This document shows positions 1 through 11,809 of a DNA stretch of 52,595 nucleotides, in pieces. Origin of the DNA: Eubacteriales bacterium (GTDB lineage: Bacteria; Bacillota; Clostridia; Lachnospirales; Lachnospiraceae). The stretch covers positions 1 to 52,595 of the forward strand of contig JAUNNI010000015.1 in NCBI GenBank assembly GCA_030531555.1. Direction: 5' to 3'. The notes under the pieces are model-generated. The model had not been told where the DNA came from. It searched no databases and was given only the letters and a program-made list of their open reading frames with translations. Position 1 is the first letter of the stretch. Each line of letters starts with the position of its first letter. The position numbers and the translations under genes are program-made.

Positions 1-11
1 GCTAATCAGTC

Positions 12-34
12 TGTCGGACTTCTATAGTCCGACA
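12..34. repeat. perfect 9-bp inverted repeat (hairpin)
   Basis: TGTCGGACT and AGTCCGACA are exact reverse complements separated by five bases. No T tract follows, so this is not a clear intrinsic terminator. It could be the end of a structured element or an operator whose context lies left of the window. Confidence 0.5.
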
Positions 35-177
35 AACTGGGAATGATTTAATTAATTAGTGGTTTAGACAATGCTTTTGATAAACTGAACGATTAACTAT
101 TAGTCCGGCCTCTATCTAGTGGATAATCATGGTAGCGAGCCGGATTCTACTTGAAAATTGATATGGGGGTAATAGTA

Positions 178-429
178 ATGAAAAGAACAACACCAAGACA
201 GATAAGAAAAAGAACCTTCATTATCTTAGGAGCAGGATTACTGATCGCATTGCTTGGGATTGCAATGAATGAACTGACCGCTGTGATTATGATTGGTTTG
301 CTTATCATGTTTTCTTCAATAATCCATCATGCAATCTGCTATCGGTGTCCGCATTGTGGAAAATTCCTTGATAGAAGTACTGGTGAATTTTGCCCCGGCT
401 GTGGAAAGAAAGTAAATGAGCTGGAGTAA
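178..429 (+). CDS. small membrane protein with C-terminal zinc ribbon
   Basis: An 83-residue protein of unknown role. A basic N-terminus (KRTTPRQIRKRT) precedes two closely spaced hydrophobic segments at about residues 11-50. The tail carries two CxxC pairs (CPHCGK and CPGCGKK, about residues 63-80) forming a zinc-ribbon. This resembles generic membrane zinc-ribbon proteins, with the ribbon probably cytoplasmic. The ATG at 178 is chosen because a G-rich ribosome binding site (GGGGGT) lies about eight bases upstream; a TTG at 151 in frame has none. It sits in accessory DNA before another small membrane gene and an HTH membrane regulator, which may form one unit. No function is claimed. Confidence 0.6.
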   Translation: MKRTTPRQIRKRTFIILGAGLLIALLGIAMNELTAVIMIGLLIMFSSIIHHAICYRCPHCGKFLDRSTGEFCPGCGKKVNELE

Positions 430-440
430 TAATATAATTA

Positions 441-483
441 TTAGGGTGCAGAACCGAATACTACAATCAAAAAATCACCCTAA
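441..483. repeat. 8-bp inverted repeat between small genes
   Basis: TTAGGGTG (441-448) pairs exactly with CACCCTAA (476-483) around a 27-base loop, just after the zinc-ribbon gene. It could end that transcript or act as an operator. A short A-rich run follows rather than a T run, so terminator activity on the plus strand is doubtful. Confidence 0.35.
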
Positions 484-586
484 AAGAAAATTGGATATAA
501 ACGGGAGAGCATGAAGCATCCAATTCATTAATTATCAGGAGGTTCATAATCCTTCTGCCAGAAGATTTATTCAGGAGGCGGTGTCA

Positions 587-763
587 ATGTCAAAGAACGT
601 ATATAAAGTACTATCAATTATATTTTTAATAATCACGATAATTGGAGTGATAGCATTTTTGGGTGGAGCCAGAAAAGTCAATGCTGGTGCAGTTATATGT
701 CCCGCAATTATAACAGCTATAGCATTCAAAAACCTTACAGATCATAAAAATGATACACATTGA
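587..763 (+). CDS. 58-residue two-helix membrane protein, unknown
   Basis: A very small hydrophobic protein with two predicted transmembrane segments (about residues 7-25 and 32-50) and a polar tail (TDHKNDTH). I recognise no family. The ATG at 587 follows AGGAGG at 573-578 with a spacing of eight bases, which is excellent. The in-frame GTG at 581 is too close to that site. It lies between the zinc-ribbon membrane gene and an XRE regulator with membrane helices. Small two-helix proteins in such places can be toxins, immunity proteins or sensor partners, but nothing here decides between them. Confidence 0.55.
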   Translation: MSKNVYKVLSIIFLIITIIGVIAFLGGARKVNAGAVICPAIITAIAFKNLTDHKNDTH

Positions 764-900
764 ATTAGCGAGCGAATTAGTAGTTGACTATTAGAAAATC
801 AAGGATGCAACTGCAGGTTGACAAAGTTCAAGCCCTATTTGGTGGCTATGCAACCACAATTTTGCTATTCTATAGCCAGAAATGCAAAGGAGGTAGAGGA

Positions 901-1374
901 ATGAATATTGCTGACAGAATTCAAAAATTACGAAGGACCAAGGGCATTTCACAGGAGCAGCTTGCAAATGTGGTTGGAGTATCAAGACAAGCAGTATCAA
1001 AATGGGAAAGTGAGCAGACTATTCCGGATCTTGATAAGATTATTATTATGAGTGAGTACTTTGGAGTGACTACGGACTATCTTTTGAAAGGACTTGAGCC
1101 TATAAAAGAAGAAAAGAGCGTTGGAAAATCTTATGATATCAGAGTATTCGTTTCAACACTGTTGGCTTGTTTAGGGATTGTAAATATGTGCTTATTGCCG
1201 CTATGGGCTAAACTATATCAAACTTTTATTTTTGCAAATGAGCACGAGGCATATACTGATGCGAATTGGTATATTTTTCATTATCCACTTGTAAGTTTGT
1301 TGTACTTATCGATTGTACTCATATTATTTGGGGCCGGATGGCTATTATATATCATGAAAAAGAGAAATATGTAA
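901..1374 (+). CDS. XRE-family regulator with C-terminal membrane helices
   Basis: 157 residues. An N-terminal HTH of the XRE/Cro type spans about residues 5-60 (helix pair around SQEQLANVVGVSRQAVSKWE). A short linker follows, then two hydrophobic segments at about residues 78-97 and 130-150, so the DNA-binding domain is probably membrane-tethered. This layout is common in Firmicutes, where such proteins often respond to envelope or membrane partners. The ATG at 901 follows AAAGGAGG, ruling out the longer reading from 784. A GGCTAT/ATAGCC inverted repeat (844-849 and 872-877) just upstream could be an autoregulatory operator. The two small membrane genes before it are candidate partners. Confidence 0.75.
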   Translation: MNIADRIQKLRRTKGISQEQLANVVGVSRQAVSKWESEQTIPDLDKIIIMSEYFGVTTDYLLKGLEPIKEEKSVGKSYDIRVFVSTLLACLGIVNMCLLPLWAKLYQTFIFANEHEAYTDANWYIFHYPLVSLLYLSIVLILFGAGWLLYIMKKRNM

Positions 1375-1476
1375 ATAATCCTCTTAAATCAGAAGAATGG
1401 TCGTAGACAATTACCAGGTCTACTATGTTGTCCGTTCTAGAGTTGTAACGGTTATTGCAGTGTTTAATGGGGCATC

Positions 1477-1559
1477 TGACGTTCATCCACGATTACGAGA
1501 AAGAAACGAATAAGAAGTTTTGATTGTACAGCCAGCAAATCAATAAAGGTTTGCTGGCT
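1477..1559. repeat. cassette-flanking direct repeat, copy 1, ending in a hairpin
   Basis: This stretch is clearly homologous by eye to 3381-3466 in the same orientation (shared blocks TGACGT, CACGATT, GAGAAA, GAATAAG, GCCAGCAAATC, GGTTTGCTGGCT). It ends in a perfect 10-bp stem, AGCCAGCAAA (1530-1539) with TTTGCTGGCT (1550-1559), around a 10-base loop. The two copies bracket the ATPase/Toprim-like gene pair. The hairpin may be a terminator, but the homology extends about 50 bp beyond it, which suggests a duplicated module boundary. Confidence 0.75.
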
Positions 1560-1624
1560 AAAATAATGCCATTTTTAGGTTTTGCGTTGTTTTGTTGAGG
1601 ATATCTTAAAAATAAACAAAAAAC

Positions 1625-1653
1625 TTGTTTTAAAACGAGATTTATGGTAAGAT
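1625..1653 (+). promoter_or_regulatory. candidate sigma-A promoter of the ATPase/Toprim-like pair
   Basis: TTGTTT (1625-1630), a 17-base spacer and TAAGAT (1648-1653). Transcription would start close to 1660, only just before the ribosome binding site of the gene at 1673, so the leader would be very short. The match is moderate. Confidence 0.4.
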
Positions 1654-1672
1654 ATTCATGGAGGTGAATACC

Positions 1673-2791
1673 ATGAAACTATTACGTGTGAAAGCCAGTC
1701 ATTTCAAAAACTGTAAGGATGAATTCACCATTGATTTCATCGCACAGTCTAAGAAAACAACTGAAGATAAAGAATACGAGCTTCAGGAGATTGCAGACTC
1801 TCTGTTCGTTTACAATACTGCTGCTTTTATTGGCAAGAATGCGTCCGGTAAGACTACAGCTATTGAATTATTAGATTGCTGTTATTCTATCTTGAGTGAT
1901 TTTCGTCTGGAGGGTAAGAATTACAGCTACGACAACATCAATCTTGAGATGATCTTCTACCATGAGGGATACGTGTATCGCTACACCACCATCCTTCATT
2001 CAGATTCATCTCTTGGAAACAAGGCCGTCTTCTCTGACCAACAGCTTTCCAAGAAGAAATATGCAAAGACGAACCTCAAGGCAATCTACGACGAGAAAAA
2101 TTTCAAACCAGTGTCCGGTATAGGTATTCTTCCGGAGGATACTTCCATTGTATTCTTTGTGTTGAAAAAGAAAGAAACCAGAGCCGTCTATTTCGACAGC
2201 AATGGTCTTGGTGTAGATACTTACCAGCTTTTGTTTAAGGCACTGAAGAATTATTCCATTTCCGGAGAGTACTTGAGCAACATCATAAAGATATTTGATG
2301 ATACCATTCAGGATTTACAGATGATTGATGACCACAACTATCGCCTCACCTATCAGGATAAGAGTGAGGTTATTTCTGATAAGGAATTGATCTATCTTCT
2401 TTCCAGCGGTACCACCAAGGGACTTCTGCTCTACGTCATCGTAGTCGCATCCTTGAAAAATGGTTTCGATCTGCTCATCGATGAAGTCGAGAATCATTTC
2501 CATAAGACCCTTGTTGAGAACATGATTAGTCTTTATAAAGACAAATCTGTAAACAAGAAGAATGCTTCTTTAATTTTCACCACGCATTACTGCGAGGTAC
2601 TGGATCTCTTCAATCGTCAGGACAACATCTGGATCTCCAAGGCAGATGGGCAGGTTTATCTTACGAACATGTACGAGGGTTACAACGTAAGGCCTGAGCT
2701 TCTGAAGAGCCGTCAGTTCTACAACAACGCTTTTCAGACCTCTGTCAATTACGAGGAACTCATGAATCTGAAAAGGAAGCTGAAAAAATGA
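1673..2791 (+). CDS. AAA ATPase of the SMC/OLD-like defence type
   Basis: 372 residues. Walker A GKNASGKTT lies at about residues 55-63, a Walker B with a catalytic acid (DLLIDEVENH) at about 266-275 and an H-loop TTH near 303. This is the ABC/SMC-like order seen in AAA_15/AAA_21 ATPases, which pair with Toprim or nuclease partners in phage defence (RloA, AbiL, PARIS AriA and OLD-like systems). The next gene overlaps it as ATGA, implying translational coupling. The start at 1673 has GGAGGTG seven bases upstream; the ATG at 1658 lies before that site. Codon choice leans toward C-ending codons (ATC, TTC, TAC) more than in the neighbours, hinting at transfer. It likely senses or energises an effector encoded by its partner. 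The defence role is inferred, not shown. Confidence 0.72.
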   Translation: MKLLRVKASHFKNCKDEFTIDFIAQSKKTTEDKEYELQEIADSLFVYNTAAFIGKNASGKTTAIELLDCCYSILSDFRLEGKNYSYDNINLEMIFYHEGYVYRYTTILHSDSSLGNKAVFSDQQLSKKKYAKTNLKAIYDEKNFKPVSGIGILPEDTSIVFFVLKKKETRAVYFDSNGLGVDTYQLLFKALKNYSISGEYLSNIIKIFDDTIQDLQMIDDHNYRLTYQDKSEVISDKELIYLLSSGTTKGLLLYVIVVASLKNGFDLLIDEVENHFHKTLVENMISLYKDKSVNKKNASLIFTTHYCEVLDLFNRQDNIWISKADGQVYLTNMYEGYNVRPELLKSRQFYNNAFQTSVNYEELMNLKRKLKK

Positions 2792-3321
2792 AGTACCTGA
2801 TTATGTGTGAAGGCCCAAACGAGCGAGAGATTATCAACATCCTCCTGGAGAATGACCTTCTGAAATTCACAGAAGATGACCTGTTAGGCTTGACCCCGTA
2901 CCATGCAAGACAGATTGCTTCTTCCGGTCAGGTAAAGACCGAACTTAACATCTATCCCGGTGAAGTTGCCGTGTACCGTATCGGCGATGGCTTGAACGAA
3001 AAGCTCAAGATTCCGGCTGAGTACAAGGACAAGATTAAATCGGTAGAAAAGTACTGTACGAAACCGGAACTGGAGATGCTACTCATTATTGCAGAAGAAC
3101 TTACTTCTGATTATGAAAAGCACAAATCTAAAACCAAACCGAAGATCTACGCTAAGCAGAACATCCGCTGCGGTCGAAAGAAATACGACAACAGCACTGC
3201 CTTCTATAGAGACTACTTTGGAGATAATCCTGAACTTCTGGTCAGCTGTATCAAGAAATACAAGCAGCTAAAAGGCGCTCACAAAAACGATGAAGGTTAC
3301 CTGGCTGATCTTTTGAAATAA
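2788..3321 (+). CDS. short Toprim-like partner protein of the ATPase (candidate effector)
   Basis: 177 residues. The N-terminus (KYLIMCEGPNEREIINILL) has the shape of a first Toprim strand, with a conserved glutamate before a helix, as in RloB, OLD and AriB-type nucleases. A possible later acidic site is RIGDGLNE near residue 69, but a clear DxD pair is not seen. The C-terminal third is basic and aromatic (GRKKYDNSTAFYRDYFG). It overlaps the ATPase gene by four bases, so the two proteins are likely made in a fixed ratio and act together. Canonical Toprim partners are usually longer. An alternative reading is a nucleotide-binding or RNA-interacting effector of unknown fold. The pairing is certain, the fold assignment moderate. 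Confidence 0.6.
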   Translation: MKYLIMCEGPNEREIINILLENDLLKFTEDDLLGLTPYHARQIASSGQVKTELNIYPGEVAVYRIGDGLNEKLKIPAEYKDKIKSVEKYCTKPELEMLLIIAEELTSDYEKHKSKTKPKIYAKQNIRCGRKKYDNSTAFYRDYFGDNPELLVSCIKKYKQLKGAHKNDEGYLADLLK

Positions 3322-3380
3322 TACCGAAATCTTAGATTGGGGTTAAAGAAAATTTTATATAAATTTCAATATCTGTGATA

Positions 3381-3466
3381 TGACGTCCCTTCACGATTGA
3401 GAAAATAAATGAATAAGTAGTTATAATGATGGTAAAGCCAGCAAATCTATATCAGGTTTGCTGGCT
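3381..3466. repeat. cassette-flanking direct repeat, copy 2, ending in a hairpin
   Basis: Second copy of the repeat at 1477-1559, same orientation. Its hairpin is extended to 13 bp: TAAAGCCAGCAAA (3433-3445) with TTTGCTGGCTTTA (3457-3469). It sits between the 3' ends of the Toprim-like gene and the convergent XRE gene, so it could serve as a two-way terminator. The homology upstream of the stem is not explained by that role. Confidence 0.75.
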
Positions 3467-3480
3467 TTAATATTATCCTT

Positions 3481-4299
3481 TTATTTTTTTCTGGCCTTGT
3501 GCTTGTGGCTTGGCACTATATAAAGTTTCTTGGCTTTTTTTAGTATTTGCTTAAAGATACGGTCTTCCTCATCCGTTATTTTTTTTCTGTTGATTCCGAG
3601 TATTTCATATATCATCTTTGTGGTTTCTTCGAGTGGATTAGCTTTGTAGCTGAGTGTTTTGATAAAGTTCTGTATCTTTTTTGCATAAGAAGGTTGTTCT
3701 ATAGGAGCAGATTCGAAATCTTTTTCATGTTCTTGGCGAATCGTCCTTATAACACTGTCTAAATCATTGTGAATATTATGGAAAAAGAATTCTTCTTCAT
3801 CAATGCAGGCTGCTTCTAAAACACGAAGATATTTATCGTCTGCATCGGGATTATGCTGCTGAACAACTTGCCTGCGCATAATATTTACCCAATCATTCAA
3901 ACTTTTAATATTCATAGAGGCAATCCCATCAACGTAGATTTCAGCATCAGCAATCAGCTTTAAAAACATAGGATGCTTGATCATCTCGCATAACAATCGA
4001 TTATTTAATCTTCCACTCTTTAAAATATCAAGTGTTTCATCATCTAAATGTAAATCTGCAATATCATGATTCAATATTTCTCTGGATTCGGATATTCCCA
4101 GTAGCCAATCTGCAGACACATCATAAAACTTAGCGAGTTCCAATAGATAAGTGTGGCTGATATCTTTGTCATCCTTCTGTTCATAGTTATCCAATGTGGA
4201 TTTCGAAATGCCGGTTGCCTTGGCTGCTTCCTCGAGAGAAAGCCCTCTTTCCACACGAAGATCTTTCAGTTTTTCTTGAATAGATAAATTAACTTTCAT
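3481..4299 (-). CDS. XRE-family regulator with long C-terminal domain
   Basis: 272 residues from an ATG at 4299 preceded by GGAGGTG; the longer reading from 4350 lacks a ribosome site. Residues about 8-65 form a Cro/XRE HTH (LSLEEAAKATGISKSTLDNYE, then SADWLLG). The remaining ~200 residues are helical and acidic with a basic tail (KKAKKLYIVPSHKHKARKK), and I do not recognise their fold. It faces away from the mobilisation genes, and its upstream region holds a palindrome at 4389-4410, so it plausibly represses itself and the element genes starting at 4655. Similar HTH proteins are frequent at the head of Clostridia mobilizable elements. It could also belong to the preceding cassette. Confidence 0.7.
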   Translation of the reverse strand: MKVNLSIQEKLKDLRVERGLSLEEAAKATGISKSTLDNYEQKDDKDISHTYLLELAKFYDVSADWLLGISESREILNHDIADLHLDDETLDILKSGRLNNRLLCEMIKHPMFLKLIADAEIYVDGIASMNIKSLNDWVNIMRRQVVQQHNPDADDKYLRVLEAACIDEEEFFFHNIHNDLDSVIRTIRQEHEKDFESAPIEQPSYAKKIQNFIKTLSYKANPLEETTKMIYEILGINRKKITDEEDRIFKQILKKAKKLYIVPSHKHKARKK

Positions 4300-4324
4300 A
4301 GACACCTCCGAGACCTTTTCTTTT

Positions 4325-4354
4325 ATTTTATCATACAGACAAAATATCAATCAA
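4325..4354 (-). promoter_or_regulatory. candidate promoter of the XRE gene
   Basis: Read on the minus strand: TTGATT (4354-4349), an 18-base spacer and TAAAAT (4330-4325), about 25 bases before the start codon at 4299. The spacing is slightly long and the match moderate. Confidence 0.4.
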
Positions 4355-4388
4355 CCTTTCTGAATTTTGAAGAAGACCTCTGAAATCA

Positions 4389-4410
4389 CATTTTCACAAA
4401 CGTGGAAATG
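4389..4410. promoter_or_regulatory. palindromic candidate operator
   Basis: CATTTTCAC (4389-4397) and GTGGAAATG (4402-4410) are inverted copies with one mismatch around AAAC. It lies between the divergent XRE gene and the mobilisation genes, where an element repressor would be expected to bind. Confidence 0.45.
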
Positions 4411-4654
4411 TTGGTTTTTTCTGCATTTTTCCTAATTTGTAGACATACGGGACGGCCCCCTTTTTTGTTATATGATGAAGCTACTTCAGCAGATAACGAA
4501 AATTGAATGATCGTCCGAGATGATATAAACCGCCATGATCATATGGGAGCGCTTCTATTAAGGAAGACTGGACAGCTCCGAACAGGGGATTTGCCTCCAA
4601 GGAACCATCAAGGGAAGAACGGCACAAACTTTAGAAGGAAAGGAGCGAAAGAAA
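4411..4654. other. non-coding upstream region of the mobilisation genes
   Basis: No gene is visible. A short GC-rich stretch followed by a T run (GGGACGGCCCCCTTTTTT, 4449-4466) could form a weak terminator-like stem. I found no good promoter or known RNA family. AAAGGAGCG just before 4655 is the ribosome binding site of the next gene. Confidence 0.4.
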
Positions 4655-4948
4655 ATGAATCTTACAAAGTATGAGAAAGAAACCATACTTCTGACTAGCG
4701 AAGGTGATGATAGCTATAATGTCTACACTTTTAATGGAAAATTTAAGCGCAAGCTTAATGATTACGCAGAAAAGTATCCGGAATATTGTAGGAAAATAGC
4801 TTCTACGGATGAAGGCAGCGAAACTTTTGAGATAAAGAAAGCAAGAGTCAGTATTCGTCTGCTGCCACCTTATTCAGAGGAACGTCGAAAAGAAGCCTGT
4901 GAAAGAGCTAAGAATTCAGAATTGATTAAGTCCCGGCAAAACGAATAA
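4655..4948 (+). CDS. conserved small protein of Firmicutes mobile elements
   Basis: 97 residues, charged, no membrane segment. The pattern LTKYEKETI.L...DDSYNVYTFNGKFKRKL, ending in a basic helix with RLLPPYSEERRKEA, matches a small protein I recall from Firmicutes conjugative and mobilizable elements, where it usually sits at the start of the transfer module. Its function is unknown. AAAGGAGCG precedes the ATG. It is followed by a DUF3847-like gene and the oriT/relaxase module, so it likely belongs to the mobilisation or early control genes. Confidence 0.6.
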   Translation: MNLTKYEKETILLTSEGDDSYNVYTFNGKFKRKLNDYAEKYPEYCRKIASTDEGSETFEIKKARVSIRLLPPYSEERRKEACERAKNSELIKSRQNE

Positions 4949-5090
4949 TTTCGTAAAAATGATGGATGTAGAGTGGGGGTTTTAGTATTGAATTCAATTG
5001 TTTTGGAGATGAAGTTTAAGTGACTCAGATCATATCTTGTTTTCAATAGATACAATTACAAACATTCAATAGAAATGGAGGTTTATCAGT

Positions 5091-5390
5091 TTGACAAATC
5101 GTAAGATGCCCGACACGCTTGAAGGGCTTGATGCTGAAAGAAAAGAAGCGGAGAAAAAAGTTCGGTATTGGGAGAATCGAGAGAAGATACTGAAGCATCA
5201 GCAAACTCAGCTTACAAGAAAGGAACGAACTAACAGGCTTTGTATCAGAGCCGGAATGCTGGAATCTTTCCTGAAGAAACCGGAACAACTGACGAATGAA
5301 CAGGTAATGGAGCTCTTGAAAGTTGCCTTCCGTCAGCCGGATGTGATGGGATTTTTAAGTGAAATGCTGAAAGGTGAAACAGAGATGTGA
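5091..5390 (+). CDS. DUF3847-like mobilisation accessory protein
   Basis: 99 residues starting at TTG, with GGAGG nine bases upstream. The first half is a charged coiled coil (ERKEAEKKVRYWENREKILKH) followed by KERTNRLCIRAGMLESFL and a C-terminal helical part. This layout is that of DUF3847 proteins, encoded directly before MobA/MobL relaxases in Clostridia elements. The position immediately before oriT suggests a MobC-like helper of relaxosome assembly, although this is inferred from place and size. No catalytic residues are expected. Confidence 0.65.
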   Translation: MTNRKMPDTLEGLDAERKEAEKKVRYWENREKILKHQQTQLTRKERTNRLCIRAGMLESFLKKPEQLTNEQVMELLKVAFRQPDVMGFLSEMLKGETEM

Positions 5391-5426
5391 TACGAAAATG
5401 TGATACAAATTCAGACCCTTTAGAAT

Positions 5427-5463
5427 AAAGGGCGCAATTATACACCGGTCCGGTGTGATTGCG
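5427..5463. other. oriT: candidate origin of transfer (oriT) with MOBQ-type nic motif
   Basis: AAAGGGCGCAATTA (5427-5440) reads TAATTGCGCCCTTT on the minus strand, close to the TAAGTGCGCCCT nic region of RSF1010/IncQ-type oriTs. The adjoining imperfect inverted repeat joins CGCAAT (5433-5438) to ATTGCG (5458-5463), with inner arms ACACCG (5442-5447) and CGGTGT (5451-5456). It lies just before a MobA/MobL relaxase gene, the usual place. More inverted repeats follow: GAGCC/GGCTC (about 5473-5492) and GATAAGAA/TTCTTATC (about 5493-5529). Confidence 0.7.
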
Positions 5464-5610
5464 TTCTTCGAAGAGCCTTAGCCAGGCGGCTCGATAAGAA
5501 TTGTACGCCATATGGCTTCATTTCTTATCCAAGAGGAACGAAGTTCCCCTTGCGCCGCTTTGCGGCTATCCCCATATTAACAACATTTAAGGACGAGGAG
5601 GTGATACAAG

Positions 5611-7179
5611 ATGCCATGTCCTGATTTTAATGTTCGACTGGTATCACGAAAAGCTGGAGAGTCAGCTGTTGCAGCTGCAGCATATCAGAGTTGCAGCAAA
5701 ATCTATTCGGAATATGATGAGCAATGGAAAAGATACACTTATAAATGGCTTGAGCTGGTACATCAGGAAATCATGCTTCCTGCCAATGCGCCCCCTGAAT
5801 ATGCTGACAGGAAAATTCTTTGGAATGCGGTGGAAGCATCAGAAAAAAGCTGGAATGCCCAGCTTGCCAGACGTCTTCGAATGGCGCTTCCCAGAGAAGT
5901 TCCTTCAGAACAGTATGTCACCATGGTCAGGGAATATTGTCAGGAATATTTTGTGAGCAAAGGAATGATCTGTGATTTTGCTATTCACGACAAAGGTGAT
6001 GGCAATCCACATGTGCATATGCTATTGACACTTAGATCTTTAAATGAGCAAGGCAATTGGTGTCAGAAGTGTATAAAAGAATATATCCTTGATGATGAAG
6101 GGAATAAGATCCGACTTCCTTCCGGAGAATGGAAAAGTCGTCGGGTTGATGTGAATGATTGGAATAATAAATCAAATTGCGAAGTGTGGAGACATGGTTG
6201 GGAAGTTATTCAGAATCGCTATCTTGAGATGAATAACTGCCCAGAAAGAGTGGATCTTCGTTCCTATGCCCGACAGGGAATTGATCAGATTCCCACTGTT
6301 CATATGGGACCTGCTGTTGCAGCATTGGAACGTAAAGGTATTCAGACTAATATCGGCAATCTGAATCGTGATATCAGAGAAACGAATTCTCTGATGCAGA
6401 CAATTCGAAATATTATTCGAGGACTTAAAAACTGGATATCGGATATTTCTGTAGCAAAACAGGCGATTCTTGATGCAATTGCAGAGATGAAAGAACCGAC
6501 ATTAGCTGAAATTCTTGTTCAGTATATGGAACTACGACAGGAGGAACGTAGTACCTGGTCTTCTAAAAGTCAGTTAAAAGGTACTTTATCTGATTATGAG
6601 AAGATATCAAAAGCCGTAGATTTCCTAAAGGAGAATAAGATTGAAACAGTGCAGGATCTCAGCATTCATCTGGAACGATTGGAAAAAACGACTGCAGAAG
6701 CAAAAGGGATTATCAAGAATAACGAGAAACGATATCAGACCATTAATTCGATTAAGAAGGCAGTGGGTATTCTTGAAAAATACAAACCGATTCATGATGC
6801 TTATATGAAAAAAGGATTCAAGATTGCCAAAGATCATTATGCAGAAACTCATAAGGAAGAGCTGGACGCATATAACAGAGCTTACCGTTTCCTTATGAAA
6901 GTTGAAGGAAGTGTTGAGATAGACATTGCAAAGCTTGATTCTGAAATTGCTGACAGGAAAAAACAGGATCATAAGGAGCAGGCAAAGTTGGATTTGATTC
7001 AGGGTAATCTTGAACAGCTTCGTACTGTCCGGTATTATGTGAGCCGTGTAATGCCAGAAAAGATTGAGCCAAGGACGATGAAAGAACAGCTTGAAATCAG
7101 TAAGATAATAGCTGACAGGGAAAATGTAAAACGTACAGAAGGATTAAGCAAAGAGAAGAAACAGAATATTGAGATTTAA
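5611..7179 (+). CDS. mobA: MobA/MobL family relaxase (MOBQ)
   Basis: 522 residues. The N-terminal ~220 residues form an HUH relaxase: a start close to MPCPDFNVRLVSRKAGESAVAAAAY (probable catalytic tyrosine in AAAY, about residue 25) and the metal-binding HxH in GNPHVHMLL near residues 132-136. It would nick the oriT just upstream and carry the strand to the recipient. The C-terminal ~300 residues are helical and charged, with coiled-coil character. No primase or helicase domain is fused. The length is normal for this family. GAGGAGGTG precedes the ATG. The coupling protein is absent from the window, so it must borrow one from a co-resident conjugative element. Confidence 0.9.
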   Translation: MPCPDFNVRLVSRKAGESAVAAAAYQSCSKIYSEYDEQWKRYTYKWLELVHQEIMLPANAPPEYADRKILWNAVEASEKSWNAQLARRLRMALPREVPSEQYVTMVREYCQEYFVSKGMICDFAIHDKGDGNPHVHMLLTLRSLNEQGNWCQKCIKEYILDDEGNKIRLPSGEWKSRRVDVNDWNNKSNCEVWRHGWEVIQNRYLEMNNCPERVDLRSYARQGIDQIPTVHMGPAVAALERKGIQTNIGNLNRDIRETNSLMQTIRNIIRGLKNWISDISVAKQAILDAIAEMKEPTLAEILVQYMELRQEERSTWSSKSQLKGTLSDYEKISKAVDFLKENKIETVQDLSIHLERLEKTTAEAKGIIKNNEKRYQTINSIKKAVGILEKYKPIHDAYMKKGFKIAKDHYAETHKEELDAYNRAYRFLMKVEGSVEIDIAKLDSEIADRKKQDHKEQAKLDLIQGNLEQLRTVRYYVSRVMPEKIEPRTMKEQLEISKIIADRENVKRTEGLSKEKKQNIEI

Positions 7180-7241
7180 GGCACAGACTCTTCACATAGA
7201 AGATGTTCCGGTGCCTTTTTGCTTTGAAAGGAAGCGAATCA

Positions 7242-7898
7242 ATGAGCCAGCTATTTTCTATTGTAAAAGCGAATGTTAACGCCAGACAGGCGGCTGACGC
7301 ATATGGGCTGAAGGTTGGGAGAAATGGTATGGCTTGCTGCCCTTTTCATCGGGATAAATCGCCCAGTATGAAAGTAGACAGGAGGTATTATTGTTTTGGC
7401 TGTGGTGTTACTGGAGATGCTATCGATCTGACAGCGAAACTTCTTAACCTTACTCCTAAGGATGCTGCACTGAGGCTGGCTAATGATTTTGGACTTTCGA
7501 TTTCTGAAAATAGAAAATCAGTACTCAACAGGATAAAAACAGTAAATTCTGATACAGTCCCAGAACTGGAGCCAAAAGAATGGCTGCAGAACGCGGTTAG
7601 AATACTACTTCAGTATCGCGATCTATTGAAGGTTTGGGAAACTCAATATGCCCCGAAAAACATGGATGATGAGTGGCATCCTTTGTTTTGTGAGGCATTG
7701 AATCAGAAAAATTATATTGAATATTTGTTAGATGAACTGCTGCAATGCAGCAAGGCGCAGTTTATGGAAATGAAAAATTGTTGCAGAAAGGAGGTGGATC
7801 GGATTGAGAAAAGACTTAGCGAAGCTCTCACCACAGGAGAAGTTCAGGCTGGCAGAGGAACTAAGAGCAGATGCAGAAGCTCACATTACAGAGATTGA
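7242..7898 (+). CDS. CHC2 zinc-finger (DnaG-type) replication protein
   Basis: 218 residues. The N-terminal ~95 residues are a DnaG-type CHC2 zinc finger: CPFH (C33, H36) and CFGC (C51, C54), with the conserved HRDKSPSM and GDAIDL segments. The rest is helical with no Toprim or archaeo-eukaryotic primase catalytic motifs that I can see. It therefore looks like the zinc-binding half of a primase, perhaps recognising initiation sites for the helicase encoded next, whose gene overlaps its last 95 bases. The ATG at 7242 follows AAAGGAAG and gives a normal CHC2 start (SQLFSIVKANV); the reading from 7203 adds 13 unlikely residues. Split CHC2/P4 pairs are common in Clostridia mobilizable elements. 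Confidence 0.8.
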   Translation: MSQLFSIVKANVNARQAADAYGLKVGRNGMACCPFHRDKSPSMKVDRRYYCFGCGVTGDAIDLTAKLLNLTPKDAALRLANDFGLSISENRKSVLNRIKTVNSDTVPELEPKEWLQNAVRILLQYRDLLKVWETQYAPKNMDDEWHPLFCEALNQKNYIEYLLDELLQCSKAQFMEMKNCCRKEVDRIEKRLSEALTTGEVQAGRGTKSRCRSSHYRD

Positions 7899-9213
7899 TG
7901 ATCCGGATTGGTTTGATGGGAAAAAGATTGATGAGGTAGCATATTGCGAGCATTTACTGGCTAAGCAGGAGATGCGCTGTATCAATCACAGAATTTATAC
8001 TATGGATGGTCTGATTGAGGATGATAAATTGCGTGGACGAATAGCAGAAGATCTGAAGCCTTATGTAAGAACGTATCTGGATAAAGCAGTAGAGAGAGTG
8101 CTGAGCACCTTAAAGCTTCTTTGTGTTTCAGAGCCTATCAGACCCACAGCTGACAGAGTGCATTTTAGAAATGGAACGTATTATCTTGATGGAAATTTTT
8201 GCAATCAGCGTGAATGGACGATGAACCGGCTTCCGGTCGATTATAATCCAGAGGCTGCAGAACCGAAAAAATGGATATCATTTCTTGCAGAACTGATGCA
8301 TGAAGATGATATCATTACTCTTCAGGAATTCCTGGGTTATACGATGATTGCCACAAATAAAGGACAGTCCATGCTGCTGATCATTGGCAGTGGTGGAGAA
8401 GGGAAGAGCAGAATCAGTGCAGTGATGCAGGAATTGTTTGGCAATAATATGAATATCGGAAATATCTGCAAGATGGAATCAGATAAGTTCGCCCCGGCAA
8501 ATCAGGAAGGAAAACTGTTATTCATAGATGATGATATGAAGATGGAAGCCCTTGCTTCCACGAATGTGATTAAGGCGATTGTAACCTGCGATGGAAAGAT
8601 GGATCTGGAACGGAAAAATAAACAGAGTTACCAGGGAATGATGTATGTCAGGATGATTGGTCTTGGTAACGGTACGTTAAAGGCCCTGCATGATAAAACA
8701 AATGGCTTTTACCGAAGGCAGATCATCATCCAGACAAAGGATAAGCCCGTCAGTCGTGTGGATGATCCCTTCCTTAAAGAAAAGCTGGAGGCAGAGCTTG
8801 ATGGCATTCTTCTGTGGTGTTTGGAAGGATTGCACCGACTGGTGGCGAACAGATATAAGTTTACCGTCTCTGAAAGATCAAAACTGCTGAAACAAGAGTT
8901 TATGGAGGATGATAATAATATCAAGGGATTCCTGACTTCTACAGGATATATTGCATTTGATCCATCGGAGCGATGCACTACAAAGAAGTTGTACGATGTT
9001 TACCGGAAATGGTGCTATGACAATGCAGAAAAGCCTATGGCAGCATCAACCTTCAGTAAGTATCTGGCAGGTCATGAAAAAGAACTTCATATCAAGCGTA
9101 ATAAAAATATCCCTTTTGAGGGTACCAAATATGCAAGAGGATATGAGGGGATAAAGACATTAACGGATGGCTTTGCTCCGATAGTAGATAATTCAGATAA
9201 TCCGTTTGTATAG
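7804..9213 (+). CDS. phage/plasmid P4-type (D5-like) SF3 helicase
   Basis: 469 residues from a TTG with AAAGGAGGTG seven bases upstream. The middle holds Walker A GSGGEGKS (about residues 195-202) and an acidic Walker B FIDDDMK (about 238-244). The start of the D5_N-like region is near NYNPEAAEP-type residues 140-175 (VDYNPEAAEPKKWISFL). The C-terminus contains a winged-helix-like part (TTKKLYDVYRKWC). This is the P4/poxvirus D5-like helicase family that unwinds origins of phages, plasmids and integrative elements. No primase active site is seen at its N-terminus. Together with the CHC2 protein it should drive element replication after excision or transfer. Confidence 0.85.
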   Translation: MRKDLAKLSPQEKFRLAEELRADAEAHITEIDDPDWFDGKKIDEVAYCEHLLAKQEMRCINHRIYTMDGLIEDDKLRGRIAEDLKPYVRTYLDKAVERVLSTLKLLCVSEPIRPTADRVHFRNGTYYLDGNFCNQREWTMNRLPVDYNPEAAEPKKWISFLAELMHEDDIITLQEFLGYTMIATNKGQSMLLIIGSGGEGKSRISAVMQELFGNNMNIGNICKMESDKFAPANQEGKLLFIDDDMKMEALASTNVIKAIVTCDGKMDLERKNKQSYQGMMYVRMIGLGNGTLKALHDKTNGFYRRQIIIQTKDKPVSRVDDPFLKEKLEAELDGILLWCLEGLHRLVANRYKFTVSERSKLLKQEFMEDDNNIKGFLTSTGYIAFDPSERCTTKKLYDVYRKWCYDNAEKPMAASTFSKYLAGHEKELHIKRNKNIPFEGTKYARGYEGIKTLTDGFAPIVDNSDNPFV

Positions 9214-9290
9214 GCACTGGGCATACAGGAAAGTGGATATGCTTTTCTGTGTGCAGAGTGTCTTTATTTTTTGAATCATTTAAAAATCTC

Positions 9291-9408
9291 ATGCCTATAT
9301 GCCTATTTATAGGAAATTACAGGGATTATCAGACCTTTCGTATGCCTGATAATCTGCCGGGGATGCCTGAACTGTGGTTGTCCTTGTCGGGCTAAGCGCC
9401 ACAGGCAT
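9291..9408. repeat. iteron-like array of ATGCCT hexamers
   Basis: ATGCCT occurs at 9291, 9299, 9342 and 9363, and inverted as AGGCAT at 9403, all within 118 bases between the helicase gene and the HTH/xis/int genes. Spacings of 21 and about 40-43 bases are near whole helical turns. This could be a replication origin for the helicase or binding sites for the small HTH protein that follows. Confidence 0.45.
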
Positions 9409-9454
9409 GATAATTGTGTCATTAATAATGACGGTATTACAGGGAGTAGTCATT

Positions 9455-9664
9455 ATGAGTATCAGAAATGAAATTAAAGCAAAACTTGTCGAAGAGGGCG
9501 TAACCATGCAGGAAGTCCTCAATCGACTTAAGAAACGATATTGCTGGAGTAACAGCATATCGAATCTGTCCGGGAAACTTGGCAGAGAATCATTAAGATA
9601 TAAAGAAGTCATTGAGCTTGCCGACGTGCTGGGCTATGACATCATATGGGTAAAAAGGAGGTAA
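9455..9664 (+). CDS. small HTH-type control protein of the element
   Basis: 69 residues. The sequence (SIRNEIKAKLVEEGVTMQEVLNRLKK, SNLSGKLGRESLRYKEVIELADVLGYDIIWVKR) is a compact Cro-like HTH lacking a C-terminal domain. I recall near-identical small proteins just before xis and int in Firmicutes elements. Its likely role is control of excision or replication genes. The ATG at 9455 has only a weak AGGGAG site. The longer reading from 9374 covers the iteron region and is unlikely to be translated. The xis gene follows after only six bases. Confidence 0.7.
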   Translation: MSIRNEIKAKLVEEGVTMQEVLNRLKKRYCWSNSISNLSGKLGRESLRYKEVIELADVLGYDIIWVKRR

Positions 9665-9670
9665 ATGCTT

Positions 9671-9868
9671 ATGGCAAAAGAAATTCCCATCTGGGAGAAG
9701 TCTAATCTTACTCTGGAGGAAGCTGCTGCATATTCCGGTATCGGTGTTGGCAAGCTGCGAGAAATTACTAATGATAAGAATTGTAATTTTGTTCTCTGGG
9801 TCGGCAAAAAACGACTGATCAAGAAACGTTTGTTTGACAAGTATATCGAGGAGGCATACTCAATTTAA
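9671..9868 (+). CDS. xis: Tn916-type excisionase
   Basis: 65 residues. It matches the Tn916 Xis layout: IPIWEKSNLTLEEAAAYSGIGVGKLREI (MerR-like winged helix), then a basic strand (FVLWVGKKRLIKKRLFDKYIEE). Such proteins bend the element ends and steer integrase toward excision. The ATG at 9671 is eight bases from AAGGAGGT; the ATG at 9665 is too near. The integrase gene follows after 88 bases holding a strong hairpin, so read-through from xis to int is probably limited. Confidence 0.88.
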   Translation: MAKEIPIWEKSNLTLEEAAAYSGIGVGKLREITNDKNCNFVLWVGKKRLIKKRLFDKYIEEAYSI

Positions 9869-9890
9869 CATCTGTAGAACTTGCGTGGAA

Positions 9891-9943
9891 AAAGGGAGTC
9901 AGATGTGATATCATTTAGATGTCACATCGAGACTCCTTTTTTG
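9891..9943 (+). terminator. strong two-part hairpin terminator between xis and int
   Basis: GGAGTC (9895-9900) pairs with GACTCC (9931-9936), and GATGTGA (9902-9908) with TCACATC (9922-9928), followed by a T run. The stem is interrupted by one unpaired A opposite GA. It could attenuate int expression. Confidence 0.75.
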
Positions 9944-9956
9944 AAAGGAGATCGAA

Positions 9957-11162
9957 TTGGATAAAAAAAGAAAGGATTATAAAGGCCGTGTCCTGAGAAC
10001 AGGAGAAAGCCAGCGAAAGGATCTGGTCTATCAGTATCGCTATACGGACTGTCATGGAAAGCGTAAGACAGTTTATTCATCCAATCTGCAGGAACTTCGA
10101 CAGAAGGAAAAGGAAATCCAGAAGCAGATGGATGATGGCATCGATTATGAGGCAGGCCAGATTACAGTTATCGAACTGTTAGAAAAGTATATTAGCCTAA
10201 AAAAAGGTGTGCGTTACAATACGCAGGTGAATTACAATTTTGTTCTGAATCTTGTCAGGGCTGAAGCATTTGGGCAGAGAAAGATCAGTACTATTAAGGT
10301 CTCAGATGCAAAACTGTGGTTTGCCAAGCTTCAGAAGGATGGAAGAAGTTGTAGTACCATCTCAACTGTCAGAGGGGTTGTGAAGCCTGCATTTCAGATG
10401 GCATATGATGAAGATGCGATTCGTAAGAATCCCTTTATCTTTAAGCTGACAGATGTTGTGGTTAATGATGCTGTTCCCAGAGTTGCTCTTACGGAAGAAC
10501 AGCTGTCTATCTGGATGGATTTTATCAAGAATGACAAGACCTATACCAAATACTATGATGAATTCATCGTTCTTCTGGGAACCGGTATGAGAGTCAGCGA
10601 GTTCTGTGGATTGACCATGAGTGATCTGGATTTTAAGAATCGTAAAATTCGTGTAGATCACCAGCTGGTACGTGAACGTGGCGGAAAGTATTATGTCGAA
10701 GAGACCAAGACGGCCAGCGGCTGTCGTTTTCTTCCTATGACAGATGAGGTTTATCATGCACTTAAAAGAATGCTGGAGCATCGTCCAAAGGTAAAGAGTG
10801 AGCCTATGGTGGATGGCCGTGTCGGATTCATCATGCTTGATAAGAATGGTAATCCTAAAGTTGCACTTCATATTGAAAATGAGATGCGCTGGGCGATGAA
10901 GAAGTACCAGAAGCTTTATCCGGATAAACCTTTGCCGAATATTACTCCTCATGTATTCCGTCACACTTTTTGCACAAATTATGCGAATGGAGGAATGGAC
11001 ATCAAGGACCTGCAGTATCTGATGGGACATTCTGATGCCGGAGTAACTCTTAACGTTTACACACATGCAAGCTATGATCATGCAGCCGAACAGATGGCTA
11101 AGATTTCTAACTTTCGAAAGAACCCTGATACAGTTGAAGAAGGGGTAACAGCTGCTGTCTAA
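9957..11162 (+). CDS. int: tyrosine recombinase, Tn916-type integrase
   Basis: 401 residues. An N-terminal arm-binding domain (KDYKGRVLRTGESQRKDLVYQYRYTD) is followed by a SAM-like core-binding domain (about residues 60-160) and the catalytic domain. Catalytic residues seen: Arg in GTGMRVSE (about 211), HxxR in HVFRH (about 331-334), the GHS histidine near 357 and tyrosine in NVYTH (about 368). The start is TTG with AAGGAG upstream. It catalyses integration and, with Xis, excision. Its 3' side contains repeated ACTACACCATTT blocks that fit integrase arm sites, so the element end should be close by. Confidence 0.93.
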   Translation: MDKKRKDYKGRVLRTGESQRKDLVYQYRYTDCHGKRKTVYSSNLQELRQKEKEIQKQMDDGIDYEAGQITVIELLEKYISLKKGVRYNTQVNYNFVLNLVRAEAFGQRKISTIKVSDAKLWFAKLQKDGRSCSTISTVRGVVKPAFQMAYDEDAIRKNPFIFKLTDVVVNDAVPRVALTEEQLSIWMDFIKNDKTYTKYYDEFIVLLGTGMRVSEFCGLTMSDLDFKNRKIRVDHQLVRERGGKYYVEETKTASGCRFLPMTDEVYHALKRMLEHRPKVKSEPMVDGRVGFIMLDKNGNPKVALHIENEMRWAMKKYQKLYPDKPLPNITPHVFRHTFCTNYANGGMDIKDLQYLMGHSDAGVTLNVYTHASYDHAAEQMAKISNFRKNPDTVEEGVTAAV

Positions 11163-11194
11163 TCAGCAGATATGGTAGTAATACTTAGTGAATT

Positions 11195-11230
11195 ACTACA
11201 CCATTTACTACACCATTTAGTGGTGTAGTT
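11195..11230. repeat. candidate integrase arm sites at the element's right end
   Basis: ACTACACCATTT occurs twice in tandem (11195-11206 and 11207-11218), followed at once by an inverted copy (AGTGGTGTAGTT, 11219-11230). A further CCTTG/CAAGG inverted repeat sits at 11286-11301. The crossover core is not identified because no matching left copy was found in the window. Confidence 0.55.
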
Positions 11231-11332
11231 ACATAGATTTATAGAGACTTACATGAAATTGACAATAAACCAAAAGTCGGAAAAACCTTGTAAAATCAAG
11301 GGCTTTGAGACTTATGGAGGGATATAGAGATT

Positions 11333-11809
11333 ATGATTAAAGTGTTATTTATCTGCCACGGCAATATCTGCCGCTCACCTATGGCAGAATTCATTATGAA
11401 AGATTTAGTGAAAAAAGAAGGTTTAGAGGACTGGTTCCTCATTGAATCCGCAGCCACAAGCTCGGAAGAAGTATGGCGCGGAGTTGGCAATCCGGTTTAT
11501 CCACCGGCTCGCCAGGAATTGGCTCGCCACGGTATTTCCTGTGAGGGAAAAAGAGCCAGAGTTCTTGTGAAGGAAGACTATGAAAAATACGATTATTTAA
11601 TTGGTATGGAAAGATATAACATCCGTAACATGAATCGTATTTTAGGCCAGGATTATGCGGAGAAAATTTATAAGATGATGAGCTTCACAAAAGAAGGGGG
11701 AGACATTGCAGACCCATGGTATTCCGGCGATTTTGAAGGTGTTTATAAACAGATTGAGAGAGGATGTAAAGGATTTTTAGAATACTTAAGAAGGAATAAA
11801 GAGTGTTAG
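11333..11809 (+). CDS. low-molecular-weight protein-tyrosine phosphatase
   Basis: 158 residues, the normal size. The P-loop at the N-terminus is CHGNICRSP (C-x5-R, about residues 9-17). The general-acid loop is DPWYSGDF (about residues 124-131). It hydrolyses phosphotyrosine (or phosphoarginine in the YwlE branch) in cytoplasmic proteins; which substrate applies here is not evident. It is the first chromosomal gene after the element's right end, and its ribosome site GGAGGG is intact. An unknown small gene follows 18 bases later, probably in the same transcript. Confidence 0.9.
   Translation: MIKVLFICHGNICRSPMAEFIMKDLVKKEGLEDWFLIESAATSSEEVWRGVGNPVYPPARQELARHGISCEGKRARVLVKEDYEKYDYLIGMERYNIRNMNRILGQDYAEKIYKMMSFTKEGGDIADPWYSGDFEGVYKQIERGCKGFLEYLRRNKEC

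What the first reader, a model, noticed from the sequence alone, without database searches (positions are those of the whole stretch)
1477..3466. Candidate two-gene defence cassette: SMC/OLD-like ATPase plus short Toprim-like partner, bracketed by direct repeats
Seen: an ATPase with Walker A, Walker B and H-loop, an ATGA-coupled 177-residue partner starting with a Toprim-like strand and glutamate, and homologous ~85-bp repeats on both sides in the same orientation. Known: ATPase/Toprim pairs (RloAB, AbiL, PARIS, OLD-Gabija types) abort phage infection. Inferred: this is a compact, possibly undescribed member moving as a cassette inside a mobilizable element.
Basis: partly seen in the sequence, partly recalled or inferred. 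Interest (0 to 1): 0.75.

Follow-up and report, generated by a model that had tools for sequence, protein, structure and literature searches.

The report
Two-gene phage-defence-like ATPase/nuclease cassette
Two overlapping bacterial genes, an ATPase and a small nuclease-like partner, form a pair that recurs in gut bacteria, plasmids and phage genomes and most likely halts infected cells; the partner belongs to a protein family that the standard libraries searched do not describe.

Summary
The ATPase (1673-2791) has Walker A, a signature-like motif, Walker B and H-loop, and overlaps by 4 nt (ATGA) a 177-aa partner (2788-3321). The flanking repeats are real (78% over 96 bp; two copies found in the genome), each with a strong hairpin. 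The ATPase is AbiLi/RloA-like AAA_21, not specifically SMC/OLD. The partner has no match above noise in Pfam, PADLOC, NCBIfam or PHROGs. Its fixed residues (CEGxxE, RxxD-x3-[D/E], TxPExE) and weak profile matches to RloB, DUF4276 and OLD-Toprim proteins point to a divergent Toprim-like domain. ATPase sequence lies directly upstream in 31 of 31 GTDB-scan loci, 13 of 14 partner-found viral loci and the 3 plasmids examined. Distribution is patchy (17 of 392 genomes in the order). The pair has the two highest GC3 values of 41 window ORFs. In 6 of 14 viral contigs it lies near packaging genes. Of 52 loci, 7 keep the ATPase with a broken partner; none shows the reverse. Best reading: an ATPase-restrained Toprim-like nuclease that arrests infected cells, working like AbiL or PARIS but a member of neither by effector family.

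The parts
1673..2791 (+). ABC-type AAA_21 (AbiLi/RloA-like) ATPase, 372 aa; predicted sensor and restrainer of the partner
   Evidence: Pfam AAA_21 7e-15; PADLOC AbiLi 1.9e-36, AriA 1.3e-15; profile match to RloA-type alignment 99.7%; invariant nucleotide-binding motifs
1832..1855 (+). Walker A GKNASGKT (residues 54-61)
   Evidence: sequence, alignments
2399..2422 (+). ABC signature-like motif LSSGTTKG (residues 243-250)
   Evidence: alignments
2468..2485 (+). Walker B DLLIDE (residues 266-271)
   Evidence: alignments
2585..2587 (+). H-loop histidine H305 (FTTHY)
   Evidence: alignments
2788..3321 (+). 177-aa partner, divergent Toprim-like putative nuclease effector
   Evidence: no family above noise in Pfam, PADLOC, NCBIfam, PHROGs; E8, E12, D67, acid at D67+4, T91, E94, E96 in 33 of 33; profile matches to RloB, DUF4276 and OLD-Toprim sets above 100 of 100 decoys, not to DUF4435
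2788..2791 (+). ATGA overlap: partner start and ATPase stop (probable translational coupling)
   Evidence: sequence; 4-nt overlap in 22 of 30 loci measured, window copy included
1470..1570 (+). upstream copy of direct repeat, with terminator-like hairpin 1531-1558
3378..3472 (+). downstream copy of direct repeat, with terminator-like hairpin 3437-3465
3484..4299 (-). HTH_3 regulator next to the cassette, perhaps part of the mobile element
   Evidence: Pfam HTH_3 8.5e-13
5611..7179 (+). MobA/MobL relaxase of the neighbouring mobilizable element
   Evidence: Pfam MobA_MobL 1.8e-85
9957..11162 (+). Tn916-type tyrosine integrase of the element
   Evidence: Pfam Phage_integrase 6e-33, Integrase_DNA 1.4e-21

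Best explanation
A two-gene abortive-infection or toxin-antitoxin-like defence cassette. The AbiLi-type ABC ATPase is proposed to assemble, bind and hold the small Toprim-like protein inactive, and to sense an infection signal. On triggering, ATP-dependent change in the ATPase would release or activate the partner, a metal-dependent nuclease (RNA, perhaps tRNA, or DNA), which would stop growth of the infected cell. Shown here: conserved pairing and overlap, conserved nucleotide-binding motifs, conserved acidic residues in the partner, accessory distribution, presence on viral contigs and plasmids, deviating composition in the window, and asymmetric loss of the partner gene. Inferred: Toprim fold, nuclease activity, restraint by the ATPase, phage trigger and substrate, recent acquisition.
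For: Pairing: ATPase sequence directly upstream in 31 of 31 GTDB-scan loci, partial or damaged in L027, L028 and L030; in 17 of 18 survey loci (L036-L051, L085, L086), truncated in L041, L048 and L050, absent at fragment L049; in 13 of 14 viral loci found by the partner, L164 beginning at the partner; and in the 3 plasmid records examined. ATPase search: 14 of 344 genomes, 13 of these also partner-positive. Mirror-tree r 0.93, reached by 0 of 2000 permutations, n = 33; this also reflects co-inheritance of neighbours. Accessory: 17 of 392 genomes of the order, 4 of 398 of the phylum, own genome counted. GC3 ranks 1 and 2 of 41 ORFs of 150 aa or more. Phage context: near packaging genes in L033, L034, L161, L165 and, partly by eye, L168 and L170: 6 of 14. 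Asymmetry: of 52 loci 38 both intact, 7 ATPase intact with partner broken, 0 the reverse, 5 both broken, 1 fragment, 1 cut; about 4e-4 under length-proportional breakage. dN/dS 0.06-0.18 in 7 of 10 comparisons, the other 3 saturated. Toprim-like. Published analogues: PARIS, AAA-neutralised TOPRIM_OLD toxins.
Against: No structure. Profile matches to Toprim-type families are weak in probability (RloB 19-29%, DUF4276 41% on a profile of 2 sequences, OLD 2%), and DUF4435, the effector family of PARIS, is not matched (5 of 100 decoys reach its score). The partner lacks the usual DxD spacing in 31 of 33 sequences. No test of toxicity, nuclease activity or phage protection. Several loci have ordinary metabolic or housekeeping neighbours, and I made no random-gene control for defence genes nearby. 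No phage record in the INPHARED set encodes the partner at the limits used; the phage evidence comes from IMG/VR contigs. L146 carries the ATPase without the partner, so the ATPase may have its own role or be a remnant. Breakage counts come largely from draft assemblies. In published work F. nucleatum AbiLi did not neutralise its AbiLii, so an antitoxin role is not universal.
Confidence: 0.68

Rival explanations
1. A plain toxin-antitoxin addiction module that stabilises mobile elements: the ATPase is the antitoxin, the partner the toxin, with no dedicated phage sensing.
For: Same gene arrangement as AAA antitoxins with TOPRIM_OLD toxins in PMC10440598; asymmetric partner loss; relaxase/integrase set beside it and presence on plasmids.
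Against: Position near packaging genes in 6 of 14 viral contigs and kinship of the ATPase to defence ATPases favour defence. Some copies have ordinary chromosomal neighbours, where addiction would give no gain.
Confidence: 0.17
2. An AbiL system proper: the partner is simply a far-diverged AbiLii/RloB, with the same substrate and trigger.
For: ATPase AbiLi 1.9e-36; partner profile aligns in register with RloB over 95 columns, above 150 of 150 and 100 of 100 column-shuffled decoys.
Against: No AbiLii or RloB hit above noise for any of 31 partners: best AbiLii E 0.017 in one member, beside unrelated models at 0.015-0.027; no RloB in Pfam at 0.1. RloB is not singled out: DUF4276 proteins score higher (32.7 against 28.7). 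Window partner 177 aa against 207-321 aa for the 13 RloB proteins. Acid spacing differs: D-x3-[D/E] in 33 of 33 against D-x-[D/E] in 13 of 13 RloB.
Confidence: 0.1
3. A non-defence regulatory or repair pair carried incidentally by mobile DNA.
For: ABC ATPase/Toprim pairs also occur in repair and replication (recalled, from no call); some loci have housekeeping neighbours.
Against: Patchy distribution, deviating composition, repeated partner inactivation, phage position.
Confidence: 0.05

Closest known systems
AbiL (AbiLi/AbiLii) of Lactococcus and the RloA/RloB pair
   Same: Two adjacent genes, ATPase first; ATPase matches AbiLi and the RloA-type profile; partner motifs align in register with RloB.
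   Different: Partner not recognised by AbiLii or RloB models; shorter; second acid at D+4 instead of D+2; T-x-P-E-x-E where RloB has mostly [ST]N-x-x-FE.
PARIS (AriA/AriB)
   Same: ABC ATPase plus stand-alone small effector; ATPase matches AriA at 1.3e-15; PARIS is also found on phage satellites (passages).
   Different: No DUF4435 in the partner; ATPase scores better as AbiLi.
NetFlax AAA (D29) antitoxins with TOPRIM_OLD toxins D44 and D60 (PMC10440598)
   Same: AAA ATPase as neutralising partner of a TOPRIM_OLD toxin; the Fig. 6 legend reports toxicity-neutralisation assays for C. algidicarnis and S. agalactiae pairs (section 6 and part 1 of 2 of section 11 read).
   Different: D44 is RloB.
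OLD family / Gabija GajA, Septu PtuAB
   Same: Related ATPase; the OLD VEGxxE motif aligns with CEGxxE.
   Different: ATPase and Toprim-like part are separate genes; no GajB helicase or HNH partner identified beside the pair in the window.

Membership tests
AbiL | AbiLi-type ATPase | tested here: met
   PADLOC PDLC02335 E 1.9e-36
AbiL | AbiLii (RloB-family) partner recognised by its models | tested here: not met
   no AbiLii hit for the window partner at E<=1; best of 31 members 0.017; no RloB hit
AbiL | remote relation of the partner to RloB | tested here: inconclusive
   hhalign scores 29.1 and 28.7 against decoy maxima 21.1 (n=150) and 18.6 (n=100), but probability 19-22%, and DUF4276 scores higher
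AbiL | abortive infection phenotype | not testable with these tools
   needs bench work
PARIS | AriA-like ATPase | tested here: met
   AriA 1.3e-15, weaker than AbiLi
PARIS | AriB / DUF4435 effector | tested here: not met
   no DUF4435 hit; hhalign against 3 DUF4435 proteins gives probability 0.5%, a score reached by 5 of 100 decoys
Gabija / OLD class 1-2 | ATPase and Toprim fused in one protein, with GajB for Gabija | tested here: not met
   separate genes; GajA hit only 3e-4
Septu | HNH nuclease PtuB beside PtuA | tested here: not met
   PtuA hit 8.2e-8 for the ATPase, but the partner has no HNH match
Toprim superfamily | E after strand 1, acidic pair (DxD) after a later strand, further acidic residue (pattern recalled) | tested here: inconclusive
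   E8, D67, acid at D+4, E94 and E96 in 33 of 33; acid at D+2 in only 2 of 33
Toprim superfamily | Toprim fold | not testable with these tools
   structure prediction not accepted or switched off

The most novel reading that the evidence does not exclude
The partner founds a separate effector family: a minimal Toprim-like nuclease whose metal site is rebuilt (D-x3-[D/E] in place of DxD, with a fixed TxPExE motif). With its own ATPase subfamily it forms a widely exchanged defence system of Bacillota and Bifidobacterium that temperate phages carry beside their packaging genes, where different alleles occupy a like phage position.
Probability: 0.45. Interest if true: 0.62.

Novelty: new variant of a known kind. 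Interest (0 to 1): 0.52.

Why it matters
ATPase/Toprim pairs are a growing group of defences in which the ATPase senses infection and a small nuclease stops the cell. This family was seen in dozens of loci, many from gut or rumen Bacillota by their record titles, yet the profile libraries searched do not name its effector; on the three plasmids examined it is annotated 'hypothetical protein' twice and 'N-6 DNA methylase' once. It offers a compact effector with a changed acid spacing that can be tested directly for toxicity, nuclease activity and phage protection, and a phage position that may hold further defence cassettes.

Tried and rejected
Rejected: OLD/Gabija, Septu and PARIS membership. 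SMC as a label for the ATPase: it is AAA_21 of AbiLi/RloA type. Left end of the neighbouring element: no exact shared word of 11 or more bases between 11161-11345 and 1-5600; the window is a whole contig and may lack it. Empty site: DNA 3400-7200 searched in 250 genomes of the family gave matches in 39, own genome included; the other 38 gave only partial matches, the strongest (64-75% identity) mostly in the relaxase, so no empty site was read. A general repeat-flanked rule: (28 other loci with both flanks; only L026 strong). Defence-island enrichment: neighbours are mixed. L018 and L020 have an AbiLi/RloA-like ATPase upstream, L001 a DarG-like gene, L003 a resolvase, L012 an integrase; single neighbours matched TIR-TM, MTase_II, PDC-S and mad3 models, and a third matched AbiLi, but the summary table does not say which. 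Only the first 25 of 151 Pfam and of 79 PADLOC families were shown, and I made no random-gene control, so I claim no enrichment. First codon tool for dN/dS failed; own Nei-Gojobori script used (3 of 10 saturated, two more with dS above 2.5). PDB sequence searches: nothing for the partner, only weak matches for the ATPase, the best at E 0.0097 to ABC transporters. INPHARED phage records: none for the partner, 3 partial weak matches for the ATPase. NCBIfam on 33 partners gave single noise-like hits, best 6e-4 to a beta-lactamase model in one member. Literature searches; no description of this effector family was seen in their listings, but the library holds open-licence papers only.
Full report
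What is there. The window is one whole contig of a draft genome. At 1673-2791 lies a 372-aa ATPase and at 2788-3321 a 177-aa partner; the partner start and the ATPase stop share ATGA. A longer start at 1658 is in frame, but relatives begin at the position of 1673. A direct repeat flanks the pair: 1470-1570 and 3378-3472, 78% over 96 columns, only two copies found in the 3.1-Mb genome at E 0.01, each with a stable hairpin.

The ATPase. Pfam gives AAA_21 (7e-15); PADLOC gives AbiLi (1.9e-36) ahead of AriA (1.3e-15) and others. A profile of 23 sequences matches an alignment of 13 RloA-type ATPases at 99.7%. Walker A, signature-like LSSGTTKG, Walker B and H-loop are conserved.

The partner. The window copy matches no Pfam, NCBIfam or PHROGs family, and no PADLOC family above noise. 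Scanning relatives one by one gives only single noise-like hits (two members in one Pfam case): PADLOC and Pfam for 31, NCBIfam for 33. In 33 sequences E8, G9, E12, R64, D67, T91, E94 and E96 are invariant, and an acid stands four residues after D67 in 33 of 33, while an acid at +2 is seen in 2 of 33, the two Bifidobacterium copies. In 13 RloB proteins the acid stands at +2 in 13 of 13. Profile comparison with RloB scores 29.1 against at most 21.1 in 150 column-shuffled decoys; reversed and cross controls stay at or below 16.4. With the widest alignment the RloB match covers 95 columns and puts CEGxxE, the aspartate and the TxPExE motif on their RloB counterparts. In a second panel RloB (28.7), DUF4276 (32.7, from only 2 sequences) and OLD-Toprim proteins (23.6) each exceed 100 of 100 decoys, while DUF4435 does not, 5 of 100 decoys reaching it. 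So the partner is likely Toprim-like, but which Toprim branch is nearest is open: DUF4276 scores above RloB. That DUF4276 is Toprim-like is recalled, from no call.

Distribution. One scan of GTDB contigs gave 31 loci, all with ATPase sequence directly upstream, partial or damaged in L027, L028 and L030. The 4-nt overlap occurs in 22 of 30 measured loci, the window copy included. Surveys found the partner in 17 of 392 genomes of the order and 4 of 398 of the phylum, the own genome counted in both. Of 18 survey loci, 17 have ATPase sequence; L049 has none, nor has fragment L052. The ATPase profile at E 1e-25 found 14 of 344 genomes; 13 are partner-positive and one has an ATPase without partner, L146; the two draws differ in part, so the reverse count is not given. 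A plasmid search with the ATPase hit 8 records; the 3 with most of the query (one Ligilactobacillus salivarius, two Bifidobacterium) have the same two-gene order, and their partners match the family profile at 1.3e-37 or better; the other 5 were not examined. No INPHARED phage record encodes the partner at the limits used. IMG/VR contigs gave 14 loci with the partner, L033-L035 and L161-L171. ATPase sequence lies upstream in 13, cut by the contig start in L163; L164 begins at the partner. An ATPase search adds L176, also paired, and L175, whose contig ends after the ATPase.

Phage position. In L033 terminase small and large subunit genes begin within 2 kb after the pair, and portal about 4 kb after it. 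L161 and L165 have the same packaging genes after the pair. L161 carries a partner 62% identical to the window's, L165 one only 32% identical, so different alleles sit at a like position. L034 has HNH and terminase small subunit genes upstream on the other strand. L168 and L170 have terminase- and portal-like genes downstream; family counts include such proteins, but the assignment to these genes I made by eye. That makes 6 of 14. Others show an integrase (L164, by eye), other phage-like genes by eye, or were not resolved.

Asymmetric decay. In 52 loci found by the partner: 38 both genes intact (L043, with an altered end, counted as intact); 7 ATPase intact with partner broken (L016, L025, L029, L031, L040, L047, L051); 0 partner intact with ATPase broken; 5 both broken (L027, L028, L030, L048, L050); L049 a fragment; L041 cut by a contig end. 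L001/L002 and L018/L019 are near-duplicates, all in the intact class. If breaks fell by gene length, 7 of 7 in the shorter gene has a chance of 3.6e-4; 6 of 6, leaving out L016 at a recombinase-like junction, 1.1e-3. Since the loci were found with the partner, the bias runs against this result. It fits a harmful partner held in check by the ATPase; position at the end of the cassette, and assembly errors, are other possible causes. Intact copies look to be under purifying selection.

Composition and carrier. The two genes have GC3 0.52 and 0.54, ranks 2 and 1 of 41 ORFs of 150 aa or more with median 0.34. They lie left of a relaxase, a CHC2 zinc-ribbon protein, a D5-like helicase and a Tn916-type integrase, so the pair is probably a recent insert in, or next to, a mobilizable element; its left end is not resolved. 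The flanking repeat with hairpins fits duplication at insertion or shared terminators. In L026 a different hairpin repeat (34 nt, 97%) stands on both sides, apparently upstream of mutM and polA (inferred from sequence and family counts). Two of 29 loci with both flanks, the window included, is a hint, not a rule.

Mechanism and placement. In PARIS the ATPase hexamer holds AriB until a phage protein triggers release, and AriB cuts tRNA (PMC12409363, passages; PMC9122126, passages). AAA ATPases are reported to neutralise TOPRIM_OLD toxins in E. coli (PMC10440598, section 6 and part of section 11). OLD-family background is from passages of PMC10568477. F. nucleatum AbiLii is toxic, though its AbiLi did not neutralise it (PMC3985639, passages). 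By analogy the ATPase here senses and restrains, and the partner cuts a nucleic acid. It works like AbiL and PARIS; by effector family it is a member of neither. NetFlax node D60 (S. agalactiae) may be this family and could not be checked. Hence: new variant of a known kind, interest 0.52.

Noticed in passing
L016:6001-7482: The partner gene loses its end and runs in frame into a serine-recombinase-like piece (by eye); a mobile-element junction inside the cassette.
   Followed up: partly
L158:4124-4666: The partner on a L. salivarius plasmid is annotated 'N-6 DNA methylase', probably a misannotation, since it matches the partner family profile at 1e-44.
   Followed up: partly
L026 flanks (4716-4885 and 6523 onward): A different terminator-like hairpin is repeated on both sides of the cassette, apparently upstream of mutM/polA.
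   Followed up: partly
L018:3232-4167 and L020:3830-4750: A second, different AbiLi/RloA-like ATPase lies upstream of the cassette; its L018 neighbours matched no PADLOC model at 1e-8.
   Followed up: partly
L146:237-1400: An open, full-length ATPase of the family without a partner gene.
   Followed up: partly
window 4655-11162: Integrated mobilizable element: DUF3847, MobA/MobL relaxase, CHC2 zinc-ribbon protein, DUF5906/D5-like helicase, Tn916-type integrase; left end not found.
   Followed up: partly
window 901-1374: XRE-type HTH regulator with a probable membrane tail (by eye) just upstream of the first repeat.
   Followed up: no
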